From an uncultured Ruminococcus sp. (lineage in GTDB: Bacteria; Bacillota; Clostridia; Oscillospirales; Acutalibacteraceae): DNA of 32,611 nt. Numbering within the stretch: the first letter of the stretch is position 1; each line of letters begins with the position of its first letter. Below, piece by piece: positions 1,772 through 32,230 of the stretch. Both the position numbers and the translations under genes were made by a program. The notes beneath the pieces were generated by a model. That model did no database searches. It was not told the origin of the DNA and saw nothing but the letters and a program-made list of their open reading frames with translations. The stretch lies in assembly GCA_902761345.1 (NCBI GenBank), contig CACWKD010000034.1, forward strand, positions 1 to 32,611. Direction: 5' to 3'.

Positions 1772-2467
1772 ATGAAAAGAGCATTAGGCTTGATCTTAGC
1801 AGCTGCAACAGTGTTATCATGTGTATCTTTTTCTTCTTTAAGTGCAGACGCATACGCTATTAAGGGCGATCTTAACGGTGATAATACGATTTCTTTGAGA
1901 GATGCCTCTATTGCGCAAAAAATAGATGTAGGACTTATCAGCCCCTCTAACGATCAGCTTAAAGGCGGAGATGTAAACGGTGACGGCGCTGTTTCCTCGC
2001 AGGATTCCCTGCTTATACAAAAATATGTGTGTTTGGATAAAGATACAGTGAATATGATTACTCCGAACTTGGAAGAAAGAAAAAGCTTTGTAGACACAAT
2101 AAATAGTGACAGAGAAAAACTTGGTTTAGCACCGTTTACCTGTACTGCTGCTCACTACGAGGCAGGTAATATAAGAGCACAGGAATATATTACAACTTTG
2201 AAAGACTCAAGACCGGACGGAAGTGAATTTTATTCTGTCATTAAAGAGTGTAATTTAAACTATAATCCGAGTGTTACTCCAAACCAGTTATTTATCGCAA
2301 CTCTTTACGATAGTAATTCTGCATATACTAAGCTTGTTAAAAGCTATACAGGAACCGACAAAATGTACACGTTGCTTATGTCTCCCGAGTACACAACCCT
2401 TTGCGTTGGAAGCGTAAAAATTCCCGGAAATACCGACAACTATCAGTGGGCTATTATCGTAAACTGA
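1772..2467 (+). CDS. Secreted dockerin type I - CAP/SCP domain protein
   Basis: A 231-residue exported protein. Residues 1-29 form a signal peptide (basic start, hydrophobic core, likely cleavage after AYA). Residues 32-87 are a type I dockerin made of two calcium-loop repeats, GDLNGDNTISLRDA and GDVNGDGAVSSQDS, each followed by a helix containing IQK/AQK. Residues ~103-231 resemble a CAP (SCP/PR-1) domain: an N-terminal helix with NSDREKLGL, a helix with NIRAQEY, the SRPDGS segment that matches the family's H-T-RPDG signature, and a final strand pattern VGSVK...YQWAII. The usual His before RPDG is absent, so metal-binding activity may be lost. A dockerin normally docks to a cohesin on a scaffoldin, implying attachment to an extracellular complex or the cell surface. 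The N-terminal dockerin is unusual. The gene is monocistronic, with its own promoter and terminator. Confidence 0.8.
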   Translation: MKRALGLILAAATVLSCVSFSSLSADAYAIKGDLNGDNTISLRDASIAQKIDVGLISPSNDQLKGGDVNGDGAVSSQDSLLIQKYVCLDKDTVNMITPNLEERKSFVDTINSDREKLGLAPFTCTAAHYEAGNIRAQEYITTLKDSRPDGSEFYSVIKECNLNYNPSVTPNQLFIATLYDSNSAYTKLVKSYTGTDKMYTLLMSPEYTTLCVGSVKIPGNTDNYQWAIIVN

Positions 2468-18039: not shown

Positions 18040-18375
18040 TTATTTAAGGTATGTGCCTGTGGGGCCAATCTGACCCTTAACAGTATTGCTCGGAGTATCG
18101 AGAACATAAATTCTTGCGTTACCCTGACCGATAGTGTCGGTTGTAAGCGTGTTATTAGTTACTGTAACCTTCTCACCTGTTACTGCCTCATAATATGTAC
18201 CGTTGAGAACATCTTTAAATGTAGCGCCGCCTGATACTGTTACAAGTACATAGCTGTCAATGTCGCCCTCTGTGTAACGACGCTTATACGCAAACTTACC
18301 TGTACAGCCTGTTGTCGAATACTGACCCTTCTGTAAAGCAGGAACTTCGCGTCTGATCATATTAAGCTTCTGCAA
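18040..18375 (-). pseudogene. C-terminal part of the frameshifted GH13 amylase
   Basis: This 111-codon frame continues the amylase in the next reading frame. Its N-terminal residues KLNMIRREVPALQKG match the post-barrel part of GH13 enzymes (the KLxxIRREVPAL helix), and the rest is the C-terminal beta-sandwich (domain C). It has no ribosome binding site of its own. Restoring one T in the T-run at minus 18414-18412 would fuse it to the upstream frame, giving DFVADTLESPLAKHLQKL and a 770-residue protein. It is therefore part of the same gene, not an independent one. Confidence 0.85.
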
Positions 18376-20351
18376 ATGCTTTGCAAGAGGACTTTCAAGT
18401 GTATCTGCAACAAATCAGTAGCTGTAACATCACCCTCAACGTAGTCGCCAAAGTATGCGCGTCCTGTTTCCTCAAGAGGTAATTTACCTTCACCGCCGTC
18501 AATTACAACGCCCTTCTTAAACTCTACTTCGCTTCCGTAGTAGATACAAGGTATTCCTCTGAAAGTAAACATCAAGCTGAGGTTTTCTGCCCATTTTGCC
18601 GTACCGCCGCCAAAACGCAGCTTGTCATTAGGCTGAGGGCCATAGTCGTGTGAGTCAACATAAACTACATTCCATGTAGAGTCATTAAAGTATGGGTCTT
18701 CTTCCTTTGCAAGGTTAAATGCACTGCCTGCGTCACTGAAATTATAGTGAACAGTAAAGTCGATTGCACCCATTCCCGAGAACTGACTGTAATCAGGTGT
18801 ATGATACTCGTTGCCGCTGAGAAGTGCATTTGTAGATTTTGGCTGTGCGCTGAAATTCTTATCGTTATCTGCCCAATGCTGAAGAGTAAGATCCATATTA
18901 GAGTTAATACTATCTCTGTCTGTATCAAAGCTCCACTGGTCGAGCAGAGTATTATCCTGTTCTTTCCATGTATAGAACTGTACGGACTCGGACACATGCT
19001 CTCTGTACCAAATCTGTCCGTATCTTGTACAAACCTCTCCGAACATATAGAAGTTATCCGCTTTGCTTGTAAGCTGCGGCAGGAACATCGCATTGAGCGA
19101 AAGTCTTGAAATATGTCTTACTGTATCAACACGGAATGCGTCAACACCCATATTAATATAATTGCCGTAAATATCAACAAGCTTTTCTGCAACAGCAGGA
19201 TTTTCCGTATTAAGGTCAACGCAGTCACCTGCTATCTGACAGTACTTACAGGTCCAGTCGTCCCAGTTAAGACTTTGCCAGTGTCCGTTGTGATAATAGT
19301 TATTAACATTATATATTTCGCTTGTGGAAACCTTGCCTGTATCCCCCTTATCCTTGAGTGGGCTTTCTACTGCATTGTTAGTTTTTACTCCCGTATCCTT
19401 CATCAAATTCAGACGTTGGTCATACTGCTTCTGACCGGGCTGTGCCCAGTATTCCTCAGCAGATTTCAGTCCGTAAGTGTCCAACAGATAATCGGTAGGC
19501 ACCATACATTTTTCAATGTCGCCTAAGTCGGAAATATCATCATACTCTTTTGTAAAAATAGGACAGAATGTTGCTTCACCAAAGTTACCTGTGTGGTTCC
19601 ATACAACGTCCTGAATTATTTTCATATCTCTATCGTGGCAAGCGTCTATGAGATCCTGATATGTAGCGCCGTCACTCTCATATCTTGCGTCTACTTTTGA
19701 GAAGTCCATTGCGTGATAACCGTGATAATCGTAGCCGCTTCCGTTCTCTACAACAGGTGTTACCCAAACCGCACTAAATCCCAAAGCCTTAATGTAATCA
19801 AGCTTATCTATAAGACCTTTAAAGTCACCTCTCCAAGCAGGATCGGTATCGGGGTTATTATAGTTTGCGTCTTCCCAGCAGTGAACATTATTATCGGGAT
19901 CACCGTCATAAAATCTTGTTGTTACAACAAAATATATTGAATCCTCTCTGAGATCGCCTCTCTCGTAGGGATTAACATAAACGTGGATCGGGTCTTTATC
20001 AGTCCACTTGTTTTTATAATACCAGTATTCGCCTGATTTTGTTCTTGAAAGTTCAGGCGATCTGCTGTCCCCTGCAATAAACTGCATATTGACCTTGGTA
20101 AGATCATCAAAAGTATATTTATACCAGTTGCTGCCCATATCAGGATCCTTATCCATAGCAACACCGGGATACTCTGTTTCTATATTCTTTGGCAGACTGT
20201 TCCAGTAGTATATCGTAGGTGCTCCGTCCTCACAATAATAGTGAACAGTTATGCCTTTTGCCTTATCATCGGCTGCACTTGTAGTAACAACAGCAAGCGA
20301 AGCTATCATTATAAAGCTAAGTACCACAGCTATAATTCTCTTAAACGTCAT
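18357..20351 (-). CDS. Secreted GH13 alpha-amylase with N-terminal CBM26-like module (3'-frameshifted)
   Basis: An extracellular alpha-amylase cleaving alpha-1,4 bonds of starch. Residues 1-27 are a signal peptide. Residues ~33-128 resemble a CBM26 starch-binding module (IYYW, PGVAM, MGSNWYKYTF). The GH13 barrel runs from ~138, with region I DVVWNHTG (248-255), nucleophile Asp409 in FRVDTVRH, acid/base Glu439 in FGEV and the third acid Asp569 in DSHD. The reading frame breaks near residue 646: a missing T in a T-run (plus 18412-18414) diverts the last ~19 codons (ending CRSLI) away from domain C, which continues at 18040-18375. The barrel is complete but domain C is lost unless this is a sequencing error or is bypassed. 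No dockerin is seen, unlike its upstream neighbour, with which it shares the starch locus. Confidence 0.9.
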   Translation of the reverse strand: MTFKRIIAVVLSFIMIASLAVVTTSAADDKAKGITVHYYCEDGAPTIYYWNSLPKNIETEYPGVAMDKDPDMGSNWYKYTFDDLTKVNMQFIAGDSRSPELSRTKSGEYWYYKNKWTDKDPIHVYVNPYERGDLREDSIYFVVTTRFYDGDPDNNVHCWEDANYNNPDTDPAWRGDFKGLIDKLDYIKALGFSAVWVTPVVENGSGYDYHGYHAMDFSKVDARYESDGATYQDLIDACHDRDMKIIQDVVWNHTGNFGEATFCPIFTKEYDDISDLGDIEKCMVPTDYLLDTYGLKSAEEYWAQPGQKQYDQRLNLMKDTGVKTNNAVESPLKDKGDTGKVSTSEIYNVNNYYHNGHWQSLNWDDWTCKYCQIAGDCVDLNTENPAVAEKLVDIYGNYINMGVDAFRVDTVRHISRLSLNAMFLPQLTSKADNFYMFGEVCTRYGQIWYREHVSESVQFYTWKEQDNTLLDQWSFDTDRDSINSNMDLTLQHWADNDKNFSAQPKSTNALLSGNEYHTPDYSQFSGMGAIDFTVHYNFSDAGSAFNLAKEEDPYFNDSTWNVVYVDSHDYGPQPNDKLRFGGGTAKWAENLSLMFTFRGIPCIYYGSEVEFKKGVVIDGGEGKLPLEETGRAYFGDYVEGDVTATDLLQIHLKVLLQSICRSLI

Positions 20352-20382
20352 TTATGCTGTCACTCCTTTTTATTTTCCAAAA

Positions 20383-20431
20383 ACTGCATTTCGGCAGTAC
20401 AGACCGATTATGCGACCGTTCTATACTGCCG
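20383..20431 (-). promoter_or_regulatory. Two overlapping hairpins between the dockerin gene and the amylase gene
   Basis: A long stem pairs 20392-20406 with 20417-20431 (15 positions, one mismatch, one G-U). On the minus strand its 3' arm overlaps a short hairpin, ACTGC-CGAAAT-GCAGT (20398-20383), that is followed by a T-run. The two are mutually exclusive. On the plus strand the long hairpin is followed by seven T. It lies just 14 bases after the upstream stop and may set the ratio of the two products by termination or mRNA processing. Confidence 0.5.
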
Positions 20432-20444
20432 TTTTTTTATAATA

Positions 20445-22085
20445 TTATTTCAGTGTTTCAAGACCCAAAGAAGCTCTCTGAACCATAGAAGCATCTTTCA
20501 AGGAAATAACGCCGTCGTGGTTTACATCGCCTCTTGCAATCTGAGCGGTTGTAAGCATAATCTTTCCGATTGCCGCACTCTGAAGAATGTATGCGTCCTT
20601 CAACTCTACCTTACCTGTACGATCAACGTCACCAAGAATATCTGTATCTACCTCTGTCGTTGTATCTGTATCGGTTTGCGTATCAGTTGCTGTATCTGTC
20701 TGAGTATCGGTTGTTGTATCGGTTGTTGTATCAGTTTGCGTATCAGTCTGTGTATCGGTTGTTGTATCTGTCTGTGTGTCGGTCTGGGTATCTGTCTGAG
20801 TATCAGTCTGGGTATCGGTCGTGTTACCTTGCTCCTTAGTAACAACTACTGTGCACTCAGCCTTAAATCCACCGTCATTAGTTGTGGCAGTAATAACAGC
20901 AGTACCCTCTGCAACAGCCGTAACCTTACCGTTTGAAACAGTTGCAACCTTTTCATCACTTGATGTCCAAGTTACGCTCTTGTCATCTGCATTTGACGGA
21001 GTAACTGTTGCTGTAAGAGTTGTACTTTCGCCTGTCTTTAACTCTGCATTTGTCTTATCAAGTGCGATAGAAGCAACCTTTACAGGATTAACTGTTGTAT
21101 CCGTATCGCTTATCGGATTGCTTGTTGATTTAAATGTATATGTCACATCAACTGTCTTGTTGTTTACAGTATTGTTCTGAATATACATCTTAACTGTATA
21201 TTCACCCTCCTGATCAGGAGTAAATGTAACTCTGTTGCCTGTTGTATAGTAAGGTGTATTTACAGCGTTGCCGCTTGCGTCAAAAACCTCTGCCTTATAG
21301 AACAGAATATTGTTGTTTACCTTACCGCCCGCACCATTAATAGTTACAGTTGTCGAACCGCCCTTTTGGATTTCCGAACCGTTAGCAGGTGTTGCACTGA
21401 GGAATATCGGGTCTTCTGCATTTGCAGCGTCCTTGACTACATACTCAACAGTTCTGCTGTTAGTATCGCCCGATCCGTCTTTAACCTCAAAGAGAACCTT
21501 ATATGTTCCCTCTTTTGTCGGATTCCAAATTACAGACTTAGTGGATGAAAAATCCGACAACACTTCATTTGCATCTCCGCTTATAGAGATCTTATACTGG
21601 AGATCTCCGCTGCCGCCCTCTGCTTCCATAGCAAGCGTGATAGACGCACCTATATACTGCGGTGACTCGACATTGCCGCCAAAGGAAGTGATCTTAATGC
21701 CGCTTGTGTCATACATTGACCAAGTACCGCTGTCCACATCATATAAATTACCGGTAAAGGTCGTGACATTGTCTGTAAGCTTTTCTCCGCCACCGTCCTT
21801 GCAGACAATAATTCCGGTCAAATCACCTATATCATAAGGCAATTCAAACGAATAAACATTATCGCCCTCGGACGTCATAGCCTTTCCGGGCCAATCGGGC
21901 TTACCGCCATCGCCCCAGTAATACAAGTACGGCGTTGTTGTTTTTGTTGTTTTGACGTAAATTGTTGTACCAAGTGTGTCCGCTGAAGCACTTATAAAAA
22001 CACTTCCGCTGACCGCAAATAATAGTGCAAACACCAGCGCAACTGCCAGTGCCCTGCCTGCGGTCGATAGTCTTCTCTTAGCCAT
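20445..22085 (-). CDS. Non-catalytic starch-binding protein: CBM26-like, Ig-like, Big_2, Thr-Asp linker, dockerin
   Basis: A 546-residue secreted protein with no enzyme domain. The start at 22085 follows AAAGGAGG; the open frame upstream is not used. Residues 1-35 are a signal peptide. Residues ~40-127 form a CBM26-like module with YLYYWGDG and WPGKAM. Two Ig-like beta domains follow (~136-218 and ~225-318), then a Big_2 domain (~336-416, with SVTWTSSDEKVATVSNGKVTA). A Thr-Asp-Gln linker covers 421-480. A type I dockerin occupies ~484-546: the first loop is GDVDRTGKVELKD, in which one calcium-ligand Asp is Thr, and the second, GDVNHDGVISLKD, is canonical. This architecture resembles Ruminococcus bromii starch-adherence proteins of the amylosome. 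The likely role is anchoring starch to a cohesin-bearing complex. The amylase gene follows 93 bases downstream. Confidence 0.88.
   Translation of the reverse strand: MAKRRLSTAGRALAVALVFALLFAVSGSVFISASADTLGTTIYVKTTKTTTPYLYYWGDGGKPDWPGKAMTSEGDNVYSFELPYDIGDLTGIIVCKDGGGEKLTDNVTTFTGNLYDVDSGTWSMYDTSGIKITSFGGNVESPQYIGASITLAMEAEGGSGDLQYKISISGDANEVLSDFSSTKSVIWNPTKEGTYKVLFEVKDGSGDTNSRTVEYVVKDAANAEDPIFLSATPANGSEIQKGGSTTVTINGAGGKVNNNILFYKAEVFDASGNAVNTPYYTTGNRVTFTPDQEGEYTVKMYIQNNTVNNKTVDVTYTFKSTSNPISDTDTTVNPVKVASIALDKTNAELKTGESTTLTATVTPSNADDKSVTWTSSDEKVATVSNGKVTAVAEGTAVITATTNDGGFKAECTVVVTKEQGNTTDTQTDTQTDTQTDTQTDTTTDTQTDTQTDTTTDTTTDTQTDTATDTQTDTDTTTEVDTDILGDVDRTGKVELKDAYILQSAAIGKIMLTTAQIARGDVNHDGVISLKDASMVQRASLGLETLK
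20646..20825 (-). repeat. Low-complexity repeat encoding the Thr-Asp linker
   Basis: About 60 codons of near-repetitive ACN-GAY-ACN-CAG units encode TDTQ/TDTT repeats. The DNA repeat is imperfect (synonymous codons vary), so it is constrained at protein level but could change length by slippage. Confidence 0.85.
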
Positions 22086-22323
22086 TAAGCATTTCCTCCT
22101 TTTATGCATAAGTCGCATATTCTCTATTAAATTATAGTAAAATATAGAATTTAAATAATTCCCAAAAAGAATATAGCTCCAATTTCCCCTCCAAACTTTT
22201 TTTATTATCTTTGTGCATATTGACAAGCAATTTTATTATCACTTACTGCTGAAAATATACATTTAAATACTAATATATTTGTATGTGTTTTTTAAGTTCG
22301 TTTTATGATAACTATGTGATTTT

Positions 22324-28144: not shown

Positions 28145-28660
28145 TTAATATTTACAAGCTAACGCATAATTATTGTAAGATTTATCCCCCGTTACCTCTT
28201 TTATTATCTCAATAAAGTCGGGAACATAAACTTGCTGATCCTCGCTTGTAAGTTCTATTTCCATAGATGCCTTATCGTCCCAAAATTCGTAAATATCTAT
28301 CTCAACAACAAAGCCGCAATAATTAAAGCTGTGACGTTTCTTTTTTATAGGCGAAGTACCGTGTCTTATTTTCTGTGAAAGAACTTCATATTCTTCCTTA
28401 GATATTTCCCACTCTTCTTCAAACCTTGATATTCCGTTAATATCTTCCTTATGCGTCTTATAATACTTTATATCCGCTCCGAAATCTCTTTTTCTTATTC
28501 TGCTGCCCCCTGCTGATCTATCATCTGAAATATATATCTGTTCTATTGAAGAAACATTGTACATATCCTGTTTTTCAAGAATTTTTATATCGGGTATTTT
28601 TATCAGCCATTTTCTTTCTATTTCAGCAGGTCGTCCGTTAATAAACACCTTTTCTTCCAT
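28145..28660 (-). CDS. CYTH-domain (triphosphate tunnel) protein
   Basis: A 171-residue protein of the CYTH/triphosphate tunnel metalloenzyme superfamily. The signature ExExK appears as EIERK (residues 13-17) followed by WLI. Alternating charged strands then follow, including RIRKRDFG, KYYKTHK, FEEEWEIS, KKKRHSF, VEIDIYEFWDD and MEIELTSE. These supply the basic and acidic residues lining the tunnel. Family members hydrolyse tripolyphosphate or thiamine triphosphate, or act as adenylate cyclases; the substrate here is unknown. The ATG lies 11 bases after the LexA-like gene, so the two are co-transcribed. Confidence 0.88.
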   Translation of the reverse strand: MEEKVFINGRPAEIERKWLIKIPDIKILEKQDMYNVSSIEQIYISDDRSAGGSRIRKRDFGADIKYYKTHKEDINGISRFEEEWEISKEEYEVLSQKIRHGTSPIKKKRHSFNYCGFVVEIDIYEFWDDKASMEIELTSEDQQVYVPDFIEIIKEVTGDKSYNNYALACKY

Positions 28661-28671
28661 ACAGCCTCCCC

Positions 28672-29262
28672 CTATTCGTAATTTCTTAAAAGAGTTATTA
28701 CCTTACCGAGCACTTTTACATATTCCGTAATTACAGTACCAAAATTTGGATTTTCAGGTTGAAGCCTGAAGTATCCGTCCTCTCGGTAAAACCTCCTTAC
28801 TACCGCTTCACCGTCAACGATCACCACCGCGATCTCACCGTTTTCCACAAAAGCCTGTTTTGCAAAAACTACTGTATCGCCGCTGAGAATACCTGCATTT
28901 ATCATACAGTCATCATCTACTCTGAGTGCGGAAAGCTCCCGTCCGTGTTTTATACTGCTGTCGACAACAACGGCTTTACTATCGAATTTTACAGTATCCG
29001 AGTTAATATCTTTAGAGATATAAGGAACAGCCATACCGCTTACCTTACTGTCATTCTCATTTATCACAATAACCCTTGCAGAGCCTGCATTTTTTGAGAT
29101 AAGACCGAGTTTTTCGAGAGTAGCAAGATGTGCGTGTATCGTTGACGTTGACTTAAACCCCGTAGCGTCACGAATTTCCCTGATCGTAGGCGAAAATCCT
29201 TCATCACGAACGGACAGAAGATAATCGTATATTTTCTGCTGACTCTTCGTTAATTTAGCCAT
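28672..29262 (-). CDS. lexA: LexA-family repressor with substituted self-cleavage residues
   Basis: A 196-residue LexA homologue. The start at 29262 is set by GGAGGGG just upstream. The N-terminal winged-helix domain (1-~66) is typical: SPTIREIRDATGFKSTSTIHAHLATLEKLGLI. The C-terminal S24-like domain (~78-196) aligns well (LRVDDDCMINAGILSGD, RLQPENPNF, VLGKVITLLR). However, the residue aligned to nucleophile Ser119 is Cys (Cys119), the general base Lys156 is Arg156, and the Ala-Gly cleavage site is replaced (VPYISKDINSD; Lys84-Asp85 by position). RecA-stimulated self-cleavage therefore seems unlikely by the normal mechanism. DNA binding and dimerisation should persist. It heads an operon with the CYTH gene. 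It might be a paralogue of the true LexA rather than the SOS repressor. Confidence 0.88.
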   Translation of the reverse strand: MAKLTKSQQKIYDYLLSVRDEGFSPTIREIRDATGFKSTSTIHAHLATLEKLGLISKNAGSARVIVINENDSKVSGMAVPYISKDINSDTVKFDSKAVVVDSSIKHGRELSALRVDDDCMINAGILSGDTVVFAKQAFVENGEIAVVIVDGEAVVRRFYREDGYFRLQPENPNFGTVITEYVKVLGKVITLLRNYE

Positions 29263-29290: not shown

Positions 29291-29319
29291 ATTATACCAC
29301 AGCTTTCCGAAAAAATCAA
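29291..29319 (-). promoter_or_regulatory. Promoter of the LexA-like - CYTH operon
   Basis: On the minus strand, TTGATT (29319-29314), 17-base spacer, TATAAT (29296-29291), extended by TGTGG before the -10, 29 bases before the ATG. No GAACNNNNGTTC LexA box is seen. A 9-base inverted repeat (29319-29327 with 29345-29353) abuts the -35 and is a possible operator. Confidence 0.65.
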
Positions 29320-29386
29320 ATTTTTGTTTATATTTATTAGTTACACAAAAATTAATGAATAATACTACAACACAAAGAGCAGCCGC

Positions 29387-29421: not shown

Positions 29422-30087
29422 TCAGTTTTTCTTCTTATATCTGTATAAAGCGTTTCTCGCCCAGTTTCTGTCCACAAGCAAGAAGCTTCTATTCGTATCT
29501 TTGTCGTAATCGCCCGCTATCTCGATACTCTTGTTATATATCTCGAGTCTTGTTGTCTGTACAAGATGTTCATTATTCTCGCCTATAAAAAATGTAAAGC
29601 CGATACTTTTCTCATTCTCACTGTACTTTGAGAAGTAACCGCCACGAACATCTTCGCCTGTTCTCTTACACACTACATCATAAAGCGCAACCTTAGCGAT
29701 CTCCATAGCACGATCATCAAGACCCGACTCAAAAATATGTATCTTTTCTTTCAGCTCGTTAAACGTACCTACAAGACGGCGGGTAATTCCCTCAAGCTCG
29801 CCATACTTTGAGTATTCTGCTTCAAGCTTTTCGTCAATAACGCTTGCTCTGTCGATCTCGGGAATATAGTACACCATGAATTTGTGTTTCATATCATTGT
29901 ACAACACAGGGTATTTGAGTTCTGCCTCGTGGTTACAGTTCTGACATCTGAAACGGAACAACTCTCCGCTTATTACAAGGTCATGCAGTTCCGCATCGGT
30001 AGTTACATTAACTGTACGAAAAATTTTGACCTCATTTTCGTGACCGCACTCGGGGCAGGTAATAATTTTTGTTTCTGCACTGGACAT
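29422..30087 (-). CDS. CpXC-domain protein
   Basis: A 221-residue protein with an N-terminal CpXC zinc-ribbon-like domain: Cys pairs ITCPECGHENEVK (residues ~10-16) and FRCQNCNHEAEL (~48-51), then PVLYNDMKHKFMVYYIP. The C-terminal part is alpha/beta with a coiled segment (~95-125). The family is uncharacterised; four cysteines probably bind zinc. AGGAGTG precedes the ATG. It is transcribed alone from an extended -10 promoter, upstream of but separate from the LexA-like operon. Confidence 0.85.
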   Translation of the reverse strand: MSSAETKIITCPECGHENEVKIFRTVNVTTDAELHDLVISGELFRFRCQNCNHEAELKYPVLYNDMKHKFMVYYIPEIDRASVIDEKLEAEYSKYGELEGITRRLVGTFNELKEKIHIFESGLDDRAMEIAKVALYDVVCKRTGEDVRGGYFSKYSENEKSIGFTFFIGENNEHLVQTTRLEIYNKSIEIAGDYDKDTNRSFLLVDRNWARNALYRYKKKN

Positions 30088-31840: not shown

Positions 31841-32230
31841 ATGAATGATGAATTAAAACTGAAATGTGAAAAACTTAAAGAAAGAAATAAAAAGTATATA
31901 CTAAAAATGCATTGGAATAGAAATGTTTTACTTCAAGAATGTTTACATGCATTGGGAAAAGATATATACATCTTATCTTCAGATAAAAATAAGGAATTGA
32001 TTAATAAACTAAATGTATTTATTTCTGTAAAAAATAACTCCTACAAAAAATCTATGAATAACATTAACGACTTATTAATTGATTATAAAAACGAAGTATT
32101 CTATATAATATGGGATGAAAAATCTTTACCAATAGTCAGAACCGATTTTTCAAACATTATTCAAGAGATAGAAAGTATTACTGCAGTGTCATTTGATACT
32201 TGGTTGATAAAAAATGACTTTAGTGTCTAA
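31841..32230 (+). CDS. AT-rich orphan gene, small Lys/Asn-rich protein
   Basis: A 129-residue soluble protein, rich in Lys, Asn and Ile, with no signal peptide or membrane segment. The N-terminal half is helical; the C-terminal half has the strand-helix pattern VFYIIWDEKSLPIVRTDF...SFDTWLI. I do not recognise it. The DNA is clearly more AT-rich than the neighbours and uses AAA, AAT, ATA and TTA heavily, which suggests horizontal acquisition. It has a weak AAGGG ribosome binding site and only a poor promoter (TATAAT near 31800). The small size and orphan AT-rich setting recall immunity-type genes, but no toxin gene is next to it. Confidence 0.55.
   Translation: MNDELKLKCEKLKERNKKYILKMHWNRNVLLQECLHALGKDIYILSSDKNKELINKLNVFISVKNNSYKKSMNNINDLLIDYKNEVFYIIWDEKSLPIVRTDFSNIIQEIESITAVSFDTWLIKNDFSV

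What the first reader, a model, noticed from the sequence alone, without database searches (positions are those of the whole stretch)
28672..29262. LexA homologue with cleavage site, nucleophile and general base all replaced
Aligned by position with E. coli LexA (Ala84-Gly85, Ser119, Lys156), this protein has Lys84-Asp85, Cys119 and Arg156, while the DNA-binding helices and the rest of the S24-like fold are intact. A LexA-fold repressor that cannot self-cleave would not respond to RecA in the usual way and may sense another signal, or use Cys119 as a redox switch. No canonical GAACNNNNGTTC box was seen at its own promoter.
Basis: partly seen in the sequence, partly recalled or inferred. Interest (0 to 1): 0.7.

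Follow-up and report, generated by a model that had tools for sequence, protein, structure and literature searches.

The report
LexA repressor that lost its self-cleavage
A rumen-type Ruminococcus relative carries, as the only copy found, a LexA repressor whose self-cutting machinery is gone while its DNA-binding and core folds are kept; relatives seem to have done the same more than once, so a classic DNA-damage switch appears to have become a fixed repressor.

Summary
Real, and not a one-off. The 196-aa protein is a LexA orthologue (TIGR00498, 135.6 bits, cut-off 110.95) at a syntenic locus, the only LexA found in its 89%-complete genome. Cys119 and Arg156 are as stated; the cleavage pair is Asn87-Ser88 by alignment, not Lys84-Asp85. 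Three of 19 congeneric LexAs, and one in another genus, share Lys156->Arg, Gly117->Asp and loss of Thr154: the same 4 of 75 distinct sequences. Ser119->Cys is seen only here, so a redox-switch role is unlikely. Between this protein and its nearest relative the cleavage segment is 3/20 identical (18/20 in a canonical pair of matched divergence), while both domains stay conserved (dN/dS 0.15, 0.10). The LexA distance is 2.6-4.3 times that of the neighbouring kinase in affected pairs, 0.5-1.2 times in canonical pairs. Neighbour-gene trees favour at least two losses. Best reading: a non-inducible DNA-binding repressor of a very small regulon, with a predicted Asp117-Arg156 ion pair where the Ser-Lys dyad was. 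Non-cleavable LexA is known in Synechocystis; this is a new, recurrent variant in Bacillota. Operator binding and absence of cleavage are inferred, not tested.

The parts
28672..29262 (-). lexA orthologue without cleavage machinery, 196 aa, ATG start
   Evidence: TIGR00498 135.6 bits vs cut-off 110.95; LexA_DNA_bind and Peptidase_S24; only LexA found in the genome
29068..29262 (-). N-terminal winged-helix DNA-binding domain (residues 1-65), conserved
   Evidence: 85% identical to G015; dN/dS 0.15
28999..29004 (-). Asn87-Ser88, position of the Ala84-Gly85 cleavage bond
   Evidence: alignments
28912..28914 (-). Asp117 in place of the conserved Gly117
   Evidence: 4 of 75 distinct sequences have Asp, the same four that have Arg156
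28906..28908 (-). Cys119 (TGT) in place of nucleophile Ser119
   Evidence: 1 of 75
28795..28797 (-). Arg156 (AGG) in place of general base Lys156
   Evidence: 4 of 75
29316..29329 (-). box-like stretch AAACAAAAATTTGA overlapping the -35; G015 has AAACAAAAGTTTGA and canonical G018 CAAACAAATGTTTG in the same place
29291..29319 (-). sigma-A type promoter TTGATT - 17 bp - TATAAT, read by eye
   Evidence: sequence
28145..28660 (-). CYTH-domain gene directly downstream, conserved lexA neighbour
   Evidence: PF01928; synteny
29422..30087 (-). CpXC protein gene upstream; same neighbour in G015 and G010, not found beside lexA in the other stretches compared
   Evidence: PF14353

Best explanation
A vertically inherited, apparently sole-copy LexA that has become a pseudo-peptidase. 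It still folds and binds LexA-type operators, but can no longer cut itself when RecA is activated, so it works as a permanently uninducible (Ind-like) repressor of a very small set of genes. Shown here by sequence: orthology, loss of the cleavage segment and dyad, purifying selection on the rest, recurrence. Inferred: that cleavage is really absent, that it binds and represses, and that Asp117 and Arg156 form an ion pair that keeps the former active-site pocket folded. Any remaining control would be through its amount, ordinary proteolysis or modification.
For: Cleavage segment 3/20 identical between window and G015, against 18/20 in the canonical pair G010/G013 with nearly equal N- and C-domain identity (55/65 and 80/98 vs 56/65 and 83/98; Fisher p 3e-6); it is 12/20 or better in all 120 pairs of the 16 canonical rows. 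Both domains under purifying selection, no stops. G117D, K156R and loss of T154 coincide in exactly 4 of 75 distinct sequences; the fourth, G140, lies in another genus. LexA distance over kinase distance 2.59-4.32 in the 3 affected pairs, 0.48-1.19 in 21 canonical pairs; over the response regulator 6.9-69.5 vs 2.2-6.4. No second LexA found in the window genome or in near-complete G015 and G021. The relative G015 keeps strict boxes at its own promoter and at the conserved target operon. S24 fold: AlphaFold, and Foldseek hits to LexA 3k2z, 1jhh (S119A) and 1jhf (G85D). Papers: Ser119 and Lys156 are critical for autohydrolysis (PMC3091678, passages); K156A is non-cleavable (PMC3834820, passage).
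Against: The window genome is a draft, 89% complete, so a second lexA could be missing. G015 keeps an Ala-Gly dipeptide one residue off (A86-G87) and three of the four keep Ser119, so slow or high-pH cleavage by Ser-Arg is not excluded; no data on a K156R LexA were found. The own-promoter box is one core base off in the window and absent in G021, and G021 has no box at the target operon, so repression of the old targets may be fading. The box pattern is not enriched over its reversed control in the window genome (28 vs 28). No operator of this LexA was shown in its own genome.
Confidence: 0.68

Rival explanations
1. LexA is decaying: the SOS switch was lost, and the protein drifts on the way to loss, doing little.
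For: Fast rate in the affected clade; own box degraded in window, absent in G021; no match at E <= 1e-20 in 55 of 398 family genomes, many of them incomplete drafts; congener G020, 97% complete, has no LexA match, but it has no recA match either, so an assembly gap is possible.
Against: Open reading frame and low dN/dS in both domains in window vs G015 (0.15, 0.10); changes concentrated in the cleavage segment and pocket; the same three active-site replacements recur.
Confidence: 0.18
2. The repressor was re-wired to another signal (modification, ligand in the former substrate groove, or a dedicated protease), as proposed for Synechocystis LexA.
For: Precedent: Synechocystis LexA, without Ala-Gly and Ser, shows a possible salt-dependent change of phosphorylation at Ser173 (PMC7567884, passages). 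Purifying selection on the C-domain. An XRE plus ImmA/IrrE-type protease pair sits beside the LexA-box operon in several congeners, and the window genome has the protease.
Against: XRE-ImmA also accompanies canonical LexA (G018, G010, G016, G008) and the protease was not found in G021, so it does not track the loss of self-cleavage. No positive sign of a ligand or modification.
Confidence: 0.12
3. Cys119-based redox switch.
For: Cys at the nucleophile position.
Against: Only 1 of 75 sequences; relatives with the same loss keep Ser; single cysteine in the protein.
Confidence: 0.02

Closest known systems
Synechocystis sp. PCC 6803 LexA
   Same: LexA orthologue lacking the Ala-Gly site (Gly-Gly) and Ser119 (Asp); long branch; thought not to run SOS (PMC3091678, PMC7567884, passages)
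   Different: There the serine is lost (to Asp); here the lysine is replaced by Arg with Gly117->Asp, and Ser119 is kept in 3 of the 4 cases; Bacillota; recurrent. Its residues 117 and 156 were not looked up
E. coli non-cleavable LexA mutants: G85D (crystal 1jhf; allele name lexA3 recalled), K156A
   Same: Non-cleavable LexA that keeps its fold (1jhf listed; K156A non-cleavable, PMC3834820, passage)
   Different: Laboratory mutants; here several natural changes fixed in several lineages
Streptococcus pyogenes SipA
   Same: Peptidase-fold protein of the LexA/signal-peptidase superfamily that lost its Ser-Lys dyad; Lys83 is described as interacting with Asp48 at the nucleophile position (PMC12984324, passages)
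   Different: Signal-peptidase branch, pilus assembly, different positions; the structure paper calls Lys83 solvent-exposed and found that changing both residues did not affect function (PMC4049620, passages)
Streptococcus mutans IrvR
   Same: LexA-like repressor that left RecA control (PMC7101444, passages)
   Different: Keeps Ala-Gly, Ser and Lys and cleaves constitutively

Membership tests
LexA repressor (TIGR00498 equivalog) | Full-length model match over cut-off | tested here: met
   135.6 vs 110.95 bits, 1-195 of 196 aa
LexA repressor (TIGR00498 equivalog) | LexA winged-helix domain plus S24 domain | tested here: met
   PF01726 3.3e-15, PF00717 2.2e-21; model
LexA repressor (TIGR00498 equivalog) | Orthologous locus | tested here: met
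   lexA-CYTH-RR-HK together in G015, G021, G018, G010, G017, G008, G003, G002, G004
Self-cleaving LexA | Ala-Gly (or Cys-Gly) cleavage bond | tested here: not met
   Asn87-Ser88
Self-cleaving LexA | Ser119 nucleophile | tested here: not met
   Cys119
Self-cleaving LexA | Lys156 general base | tested here: not met
   Arg156
Self-cleaving LexA | RecA-stimulated cleavage | not testable with these tools
   biochemistry needed; recA is present
SOS regulator | Operators at lexA, recA, uvrB | tested here: not met
   In the window genome no strict box within 300 bp of lexA or recA or of uvrB (uvrB starts were picked automatically, several of them poorly). Only these genes were tested
SOS regulator | Operator at the genus-wide target operon | tested here: inconclusive
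   Box in 9 of 17 genomes tested, but in the window genome only 123 bp upstream of the operon are on its contig and the divergent XRE gene lies near the end of another contig
Synechocystis-type non-cleavable LexA | Sole LexA, no Ala-Gly, dyad broken | tested here: met
   draft genome, so 'sole' is conditional

The most novel reading that the evidence does not exclude
A repeatedly evolved class of LexA pseudo-peptidases, marked by the pair Asp117/Arg156 with Thr154 lost, in which selection, not drift, rebuilt the active site as a buried ion pair; the emptied groove may hold the linker shut or bind a small molecule or peptide, making LexA a fixed or differently tuned repressor in rumen Ruminococcus.
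Probability: 0.3. Interest if true: 0.7.

Novelty: new variant of a known kind. Interest (0 to 1): 0.52.

Why it matters
It suggests that the textbook switch of the bacterial DNA-damage response can be disconnected more than once while the repressor is kept, and offers a simple sequence mark (Asp117/Arg156) to look for other species annotated as having LexA that may have no inducible SOS response. The standard family model calls this protein an ordinary LexA.

Tried and rejected
Canonical second lexA: searched by protein and by family model in the window genome, none. recA as LexA target: strict matches in 3 of 20 genomes, not the window's; 8 of 1000 shuffles reach 3, so a weak signal remains (G019 at -100; G015 and G018 at -262 and -250, perhaps inside the upstream gene). 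uvrB: no box in 17 of 17 genes looked at (upstream start often badly placed). Box matches in the window genome: 28 found, 15 of them looked at. Perfect palindrome CGAACATATGTTCG in G000:C36: no convincing ORF beside it, between a sigma-factor gene and a HicB-like gene, not taken as a target. A match at C58 that recurs at G021:C30 before the same gene lies in conserved coding sequence in G021, rejected. Intergenic matches at C28, C3 and C13 were not followed. Genome-wide box pattern: no excess over its reversed control in the window genome. ImmA/IrrE protease as substitute for self-cleavage: rejected by distribution. Viral contigs for further Asp117/Arg156 cases: 9 loci, one near full length; residues not read. 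Papers: the listings of searches (12 of 43 listed) gave nothing usable on K156R, S119C, G117 or T154 LexA; passages of PMC6182141 were of no help; Lin and Little 1988 is not held. One search (LexA, Ruminococcus, SOS response), by its listing of 10, showed no paper on this.

Full report
1. What is there. The minus-strand ORF 28672-29262 encodes 196 aa. It passes the NCBIfam LexA equivalog model over its whole length and carries both LexA Pfam domains. All 17 solved-structure matches are LexAs. An AlphaFold model from 21 aligned sequences (window plus 20 of the 30 loci) has mean pLDDT 83.7, with 93-95 over residues 111-190 and 65-75 over 61-100. Foldseek ranks LexA structures first. Full-length rmsd is large (12-16 A), which I put down to domain orientation; the C-domain alone aligns at 1.5-4.1 A to several LexA C-domains.

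2. Correction of the register. Aligned on the conserved V/L-P motif, E. coli Ala84-Gly85 lie opposite window Asn87-Ser88. A deletion further on brings the numbers back in step, so Cys119 and Arg156 are right. The cleavage site is lost either way.

3. Only copy found. Protein and family-model searches of the window genome (2.09 Mb, 99 contigs, 89% complete) find one LexA; one other weak match has E 0.071. Of 22 genomes in the genus 19 have a match to the protein, one each; G001, G012 (77% and 68% complete) and G020 (97%) have none. The locus is syntenic: lexA, CYTH, response regulator and kinase are together in 9 of the 9 congeneric stretches long enough to show it (12 loci were given: G014's is too short for the kinase, and G023 and G140 of other genera matched only lexA).

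4. Relatives with the same loss. G015 and G021 also lack Lys156 (Arg) but keep Ser119; 16 of 19 congeneric rows are Ala-Gly, Ser, Lys. Named records of equal contig length: G015 = RUG122, G021 = RUG080, canonical sister G018 = RUG14234, titled uncultured Ruminococcus; that these are rumen genomes is recalled from the RUG prefix. Cleavage pair: window Asn-Ser; G021 Asn-Gly; G015 a gap there in MAFFT, but an Ala-Gly one residue off. In the family scan 343 of 398 genomes match at E <= 1e-20; its list of places was cut at about 196 bits, so I re-searched 22 genomes with low best E-values. That choice was by eye and not exhaustive: at least seven genomes with still lower scores and many with higher ones were not read. 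Of 30 matches returned I aligned 24. One, G140 of another genus (99% complete, one match), has the fourth altered LexA; its aligned pair is Pro-Asn.

5. The signature. Over 105 collected rows, 75 distinct (29 from the genus, family and order sets, 22 from the low-score set, 17, 6 further, and E. coli; composition; a mixture of LexA and LexA-like S24 C-domains, not a random sample), Gly117 is in 71 and Asp in 4; Lys156 in 71 and Arg in 4; Thr154 in 71. The exceptions are the same four proteins. Ser119 is in 74. In a LexA docking study Glu152, Thr154 and Lys156 are named as pocket residues (PMC10020695, passage). An Asp117-Arg156 ion pair is my inference from sequence. SipA, a dead signal peptidase, gives a loose precedent for a charged pair (PMC12984324), though its structure paper found the pair dispensable (PMC4049620; passages).

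6. Selection. Between window and G015 (Nei-Gojobori, synonymous sites partly saturated): N-domain dN/dS 0.15, C-domain 0.10, the stretch between them 0.34 (26 codons). The cleavage segment itself is 3/20 identical against 18/20 for G010/G013, whose domains are about as diverged; the lowest of 120 canonical pairs is 12/20. The LexA distance divided by the kinase distance is 0.48-1.19 in 21 canonical pairs, 1.38-2.91 in 21 mixed pairs, 2.59-4.32 in the 3 affected pairs; divided by the response-regulator distance 2.2-6.4 in canonical and 6.9-69.5 in affected pairs. Pairs are not independent. CYTH is also quicker relative to the kinase in this clade (2.8-3.7 in affected pairs, 1.4-2.5 in canonical ones), so part of the kinase-based effect may be a slow kinase.

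7. How many losses. The LexA tree alone groups the three congeners (97/93). Kinase + regulator + recA give ((window, G015),(G021, G018)) with 97-100% support and reject the other two groupings (AU p < 0.001), while LexA does not reject it (AU 0.28 protein, 0.42 DNA). recA DNA alone puts G018 with window + G015 at 84/73, and recA protein does not resolve the four. So two losses in this clade, or one with reversal in G018, plus G140, whose independence is inferred from its distant genus and not from a tree. The kinase is linked to lexA and dominates the concatenation.

8. What it may still control. In the genus a strict box RAACNNNNGTTY lies upstream of lexA in 9 of 18 genomes (shuffles: mean 0.48, none of 1000 reach 9) and upstream of a small operon (75-aa protein plus sigma-70 region-4-like protein) in 9 of 17 (shuffle mean 0.76, none of 1000 reach 9). 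Dropped before counting: G005 for lexA (53 bp upstream); for the operon G006 and G004 (start not placed by the script), the second G003 copy and a weak second G000 match. Three of the 17 operons and four of the 18 lexA genes had under 300 bp upstream. G015 keeps both boxes; G021 neither; the window has a degraded own box, and its operon box cannot be seen, since contigs C23 and C35 appear to end in that stretch. recA has a strict box in 3 of 20 genomes, not the window's (8 of 1000 shuffles reach 3), and uvrB in none of 17. No Y-family polymerase gene was found in the window genome; 13 of 22 genus genomes have one. Genome-wide the box pattern does not exceed its reversed control in any of the 8 genomes searched by more than one site (G018 25 vs 25). 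The SOS regulon was thus probably small before cleavage was lost, which may explain why losing it was tolerated.

9. Known or new. Synechocystis LexA is the closest known case. I found no paper on such a LexA in Ruminococcus or with this signature in searches of an open-licence library (listings only, two of them capped; subscription journals are mostly not held). Hence: new variant of a known kind.

Noticed in passing
L177:777-2494 (G015), also L170, L172, L183: Operon found in 19 of 22 genus genomes: a 75-aa protein with no Pfam or PHROG match and a sigma-70 region-4-like protein, behind a LexA box in 9 of 17; in five genomes divergent from an XRE regulator plus ImmA/IrrE-type metalloprotease. 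It recalls phage-type control modules (recalled, not tested).
   Followed up: partly
G021 (99% complete): No full-length uvrB found (best E 2.3e-16) although 18 of 22 genus genomes have one over the cut-off.
   Followed up: no
window 31841-32230 (+): Match to the CdiI_ImmP immunity protein family (5.6e-21) near the contig end; a toxin partner was not looked for.
   Followed up: no
window 18357-22226 (-) and 1772-2467 (+): Alpha-amylase with a starch-binding module, next to a Big_2/CBM26 protein with a type I dockerin; a second dockerin protein at 1772-2467: signs of a starch-directed cellulosome-like system.
   Followed up: partly
L262 and L278 (G189, genus g40): Two LexA-like proteins in one genome, both with Cys-Gly at the cleavage site; Cys at that position occurs in 17 of 75 rows.
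   Followed up: no
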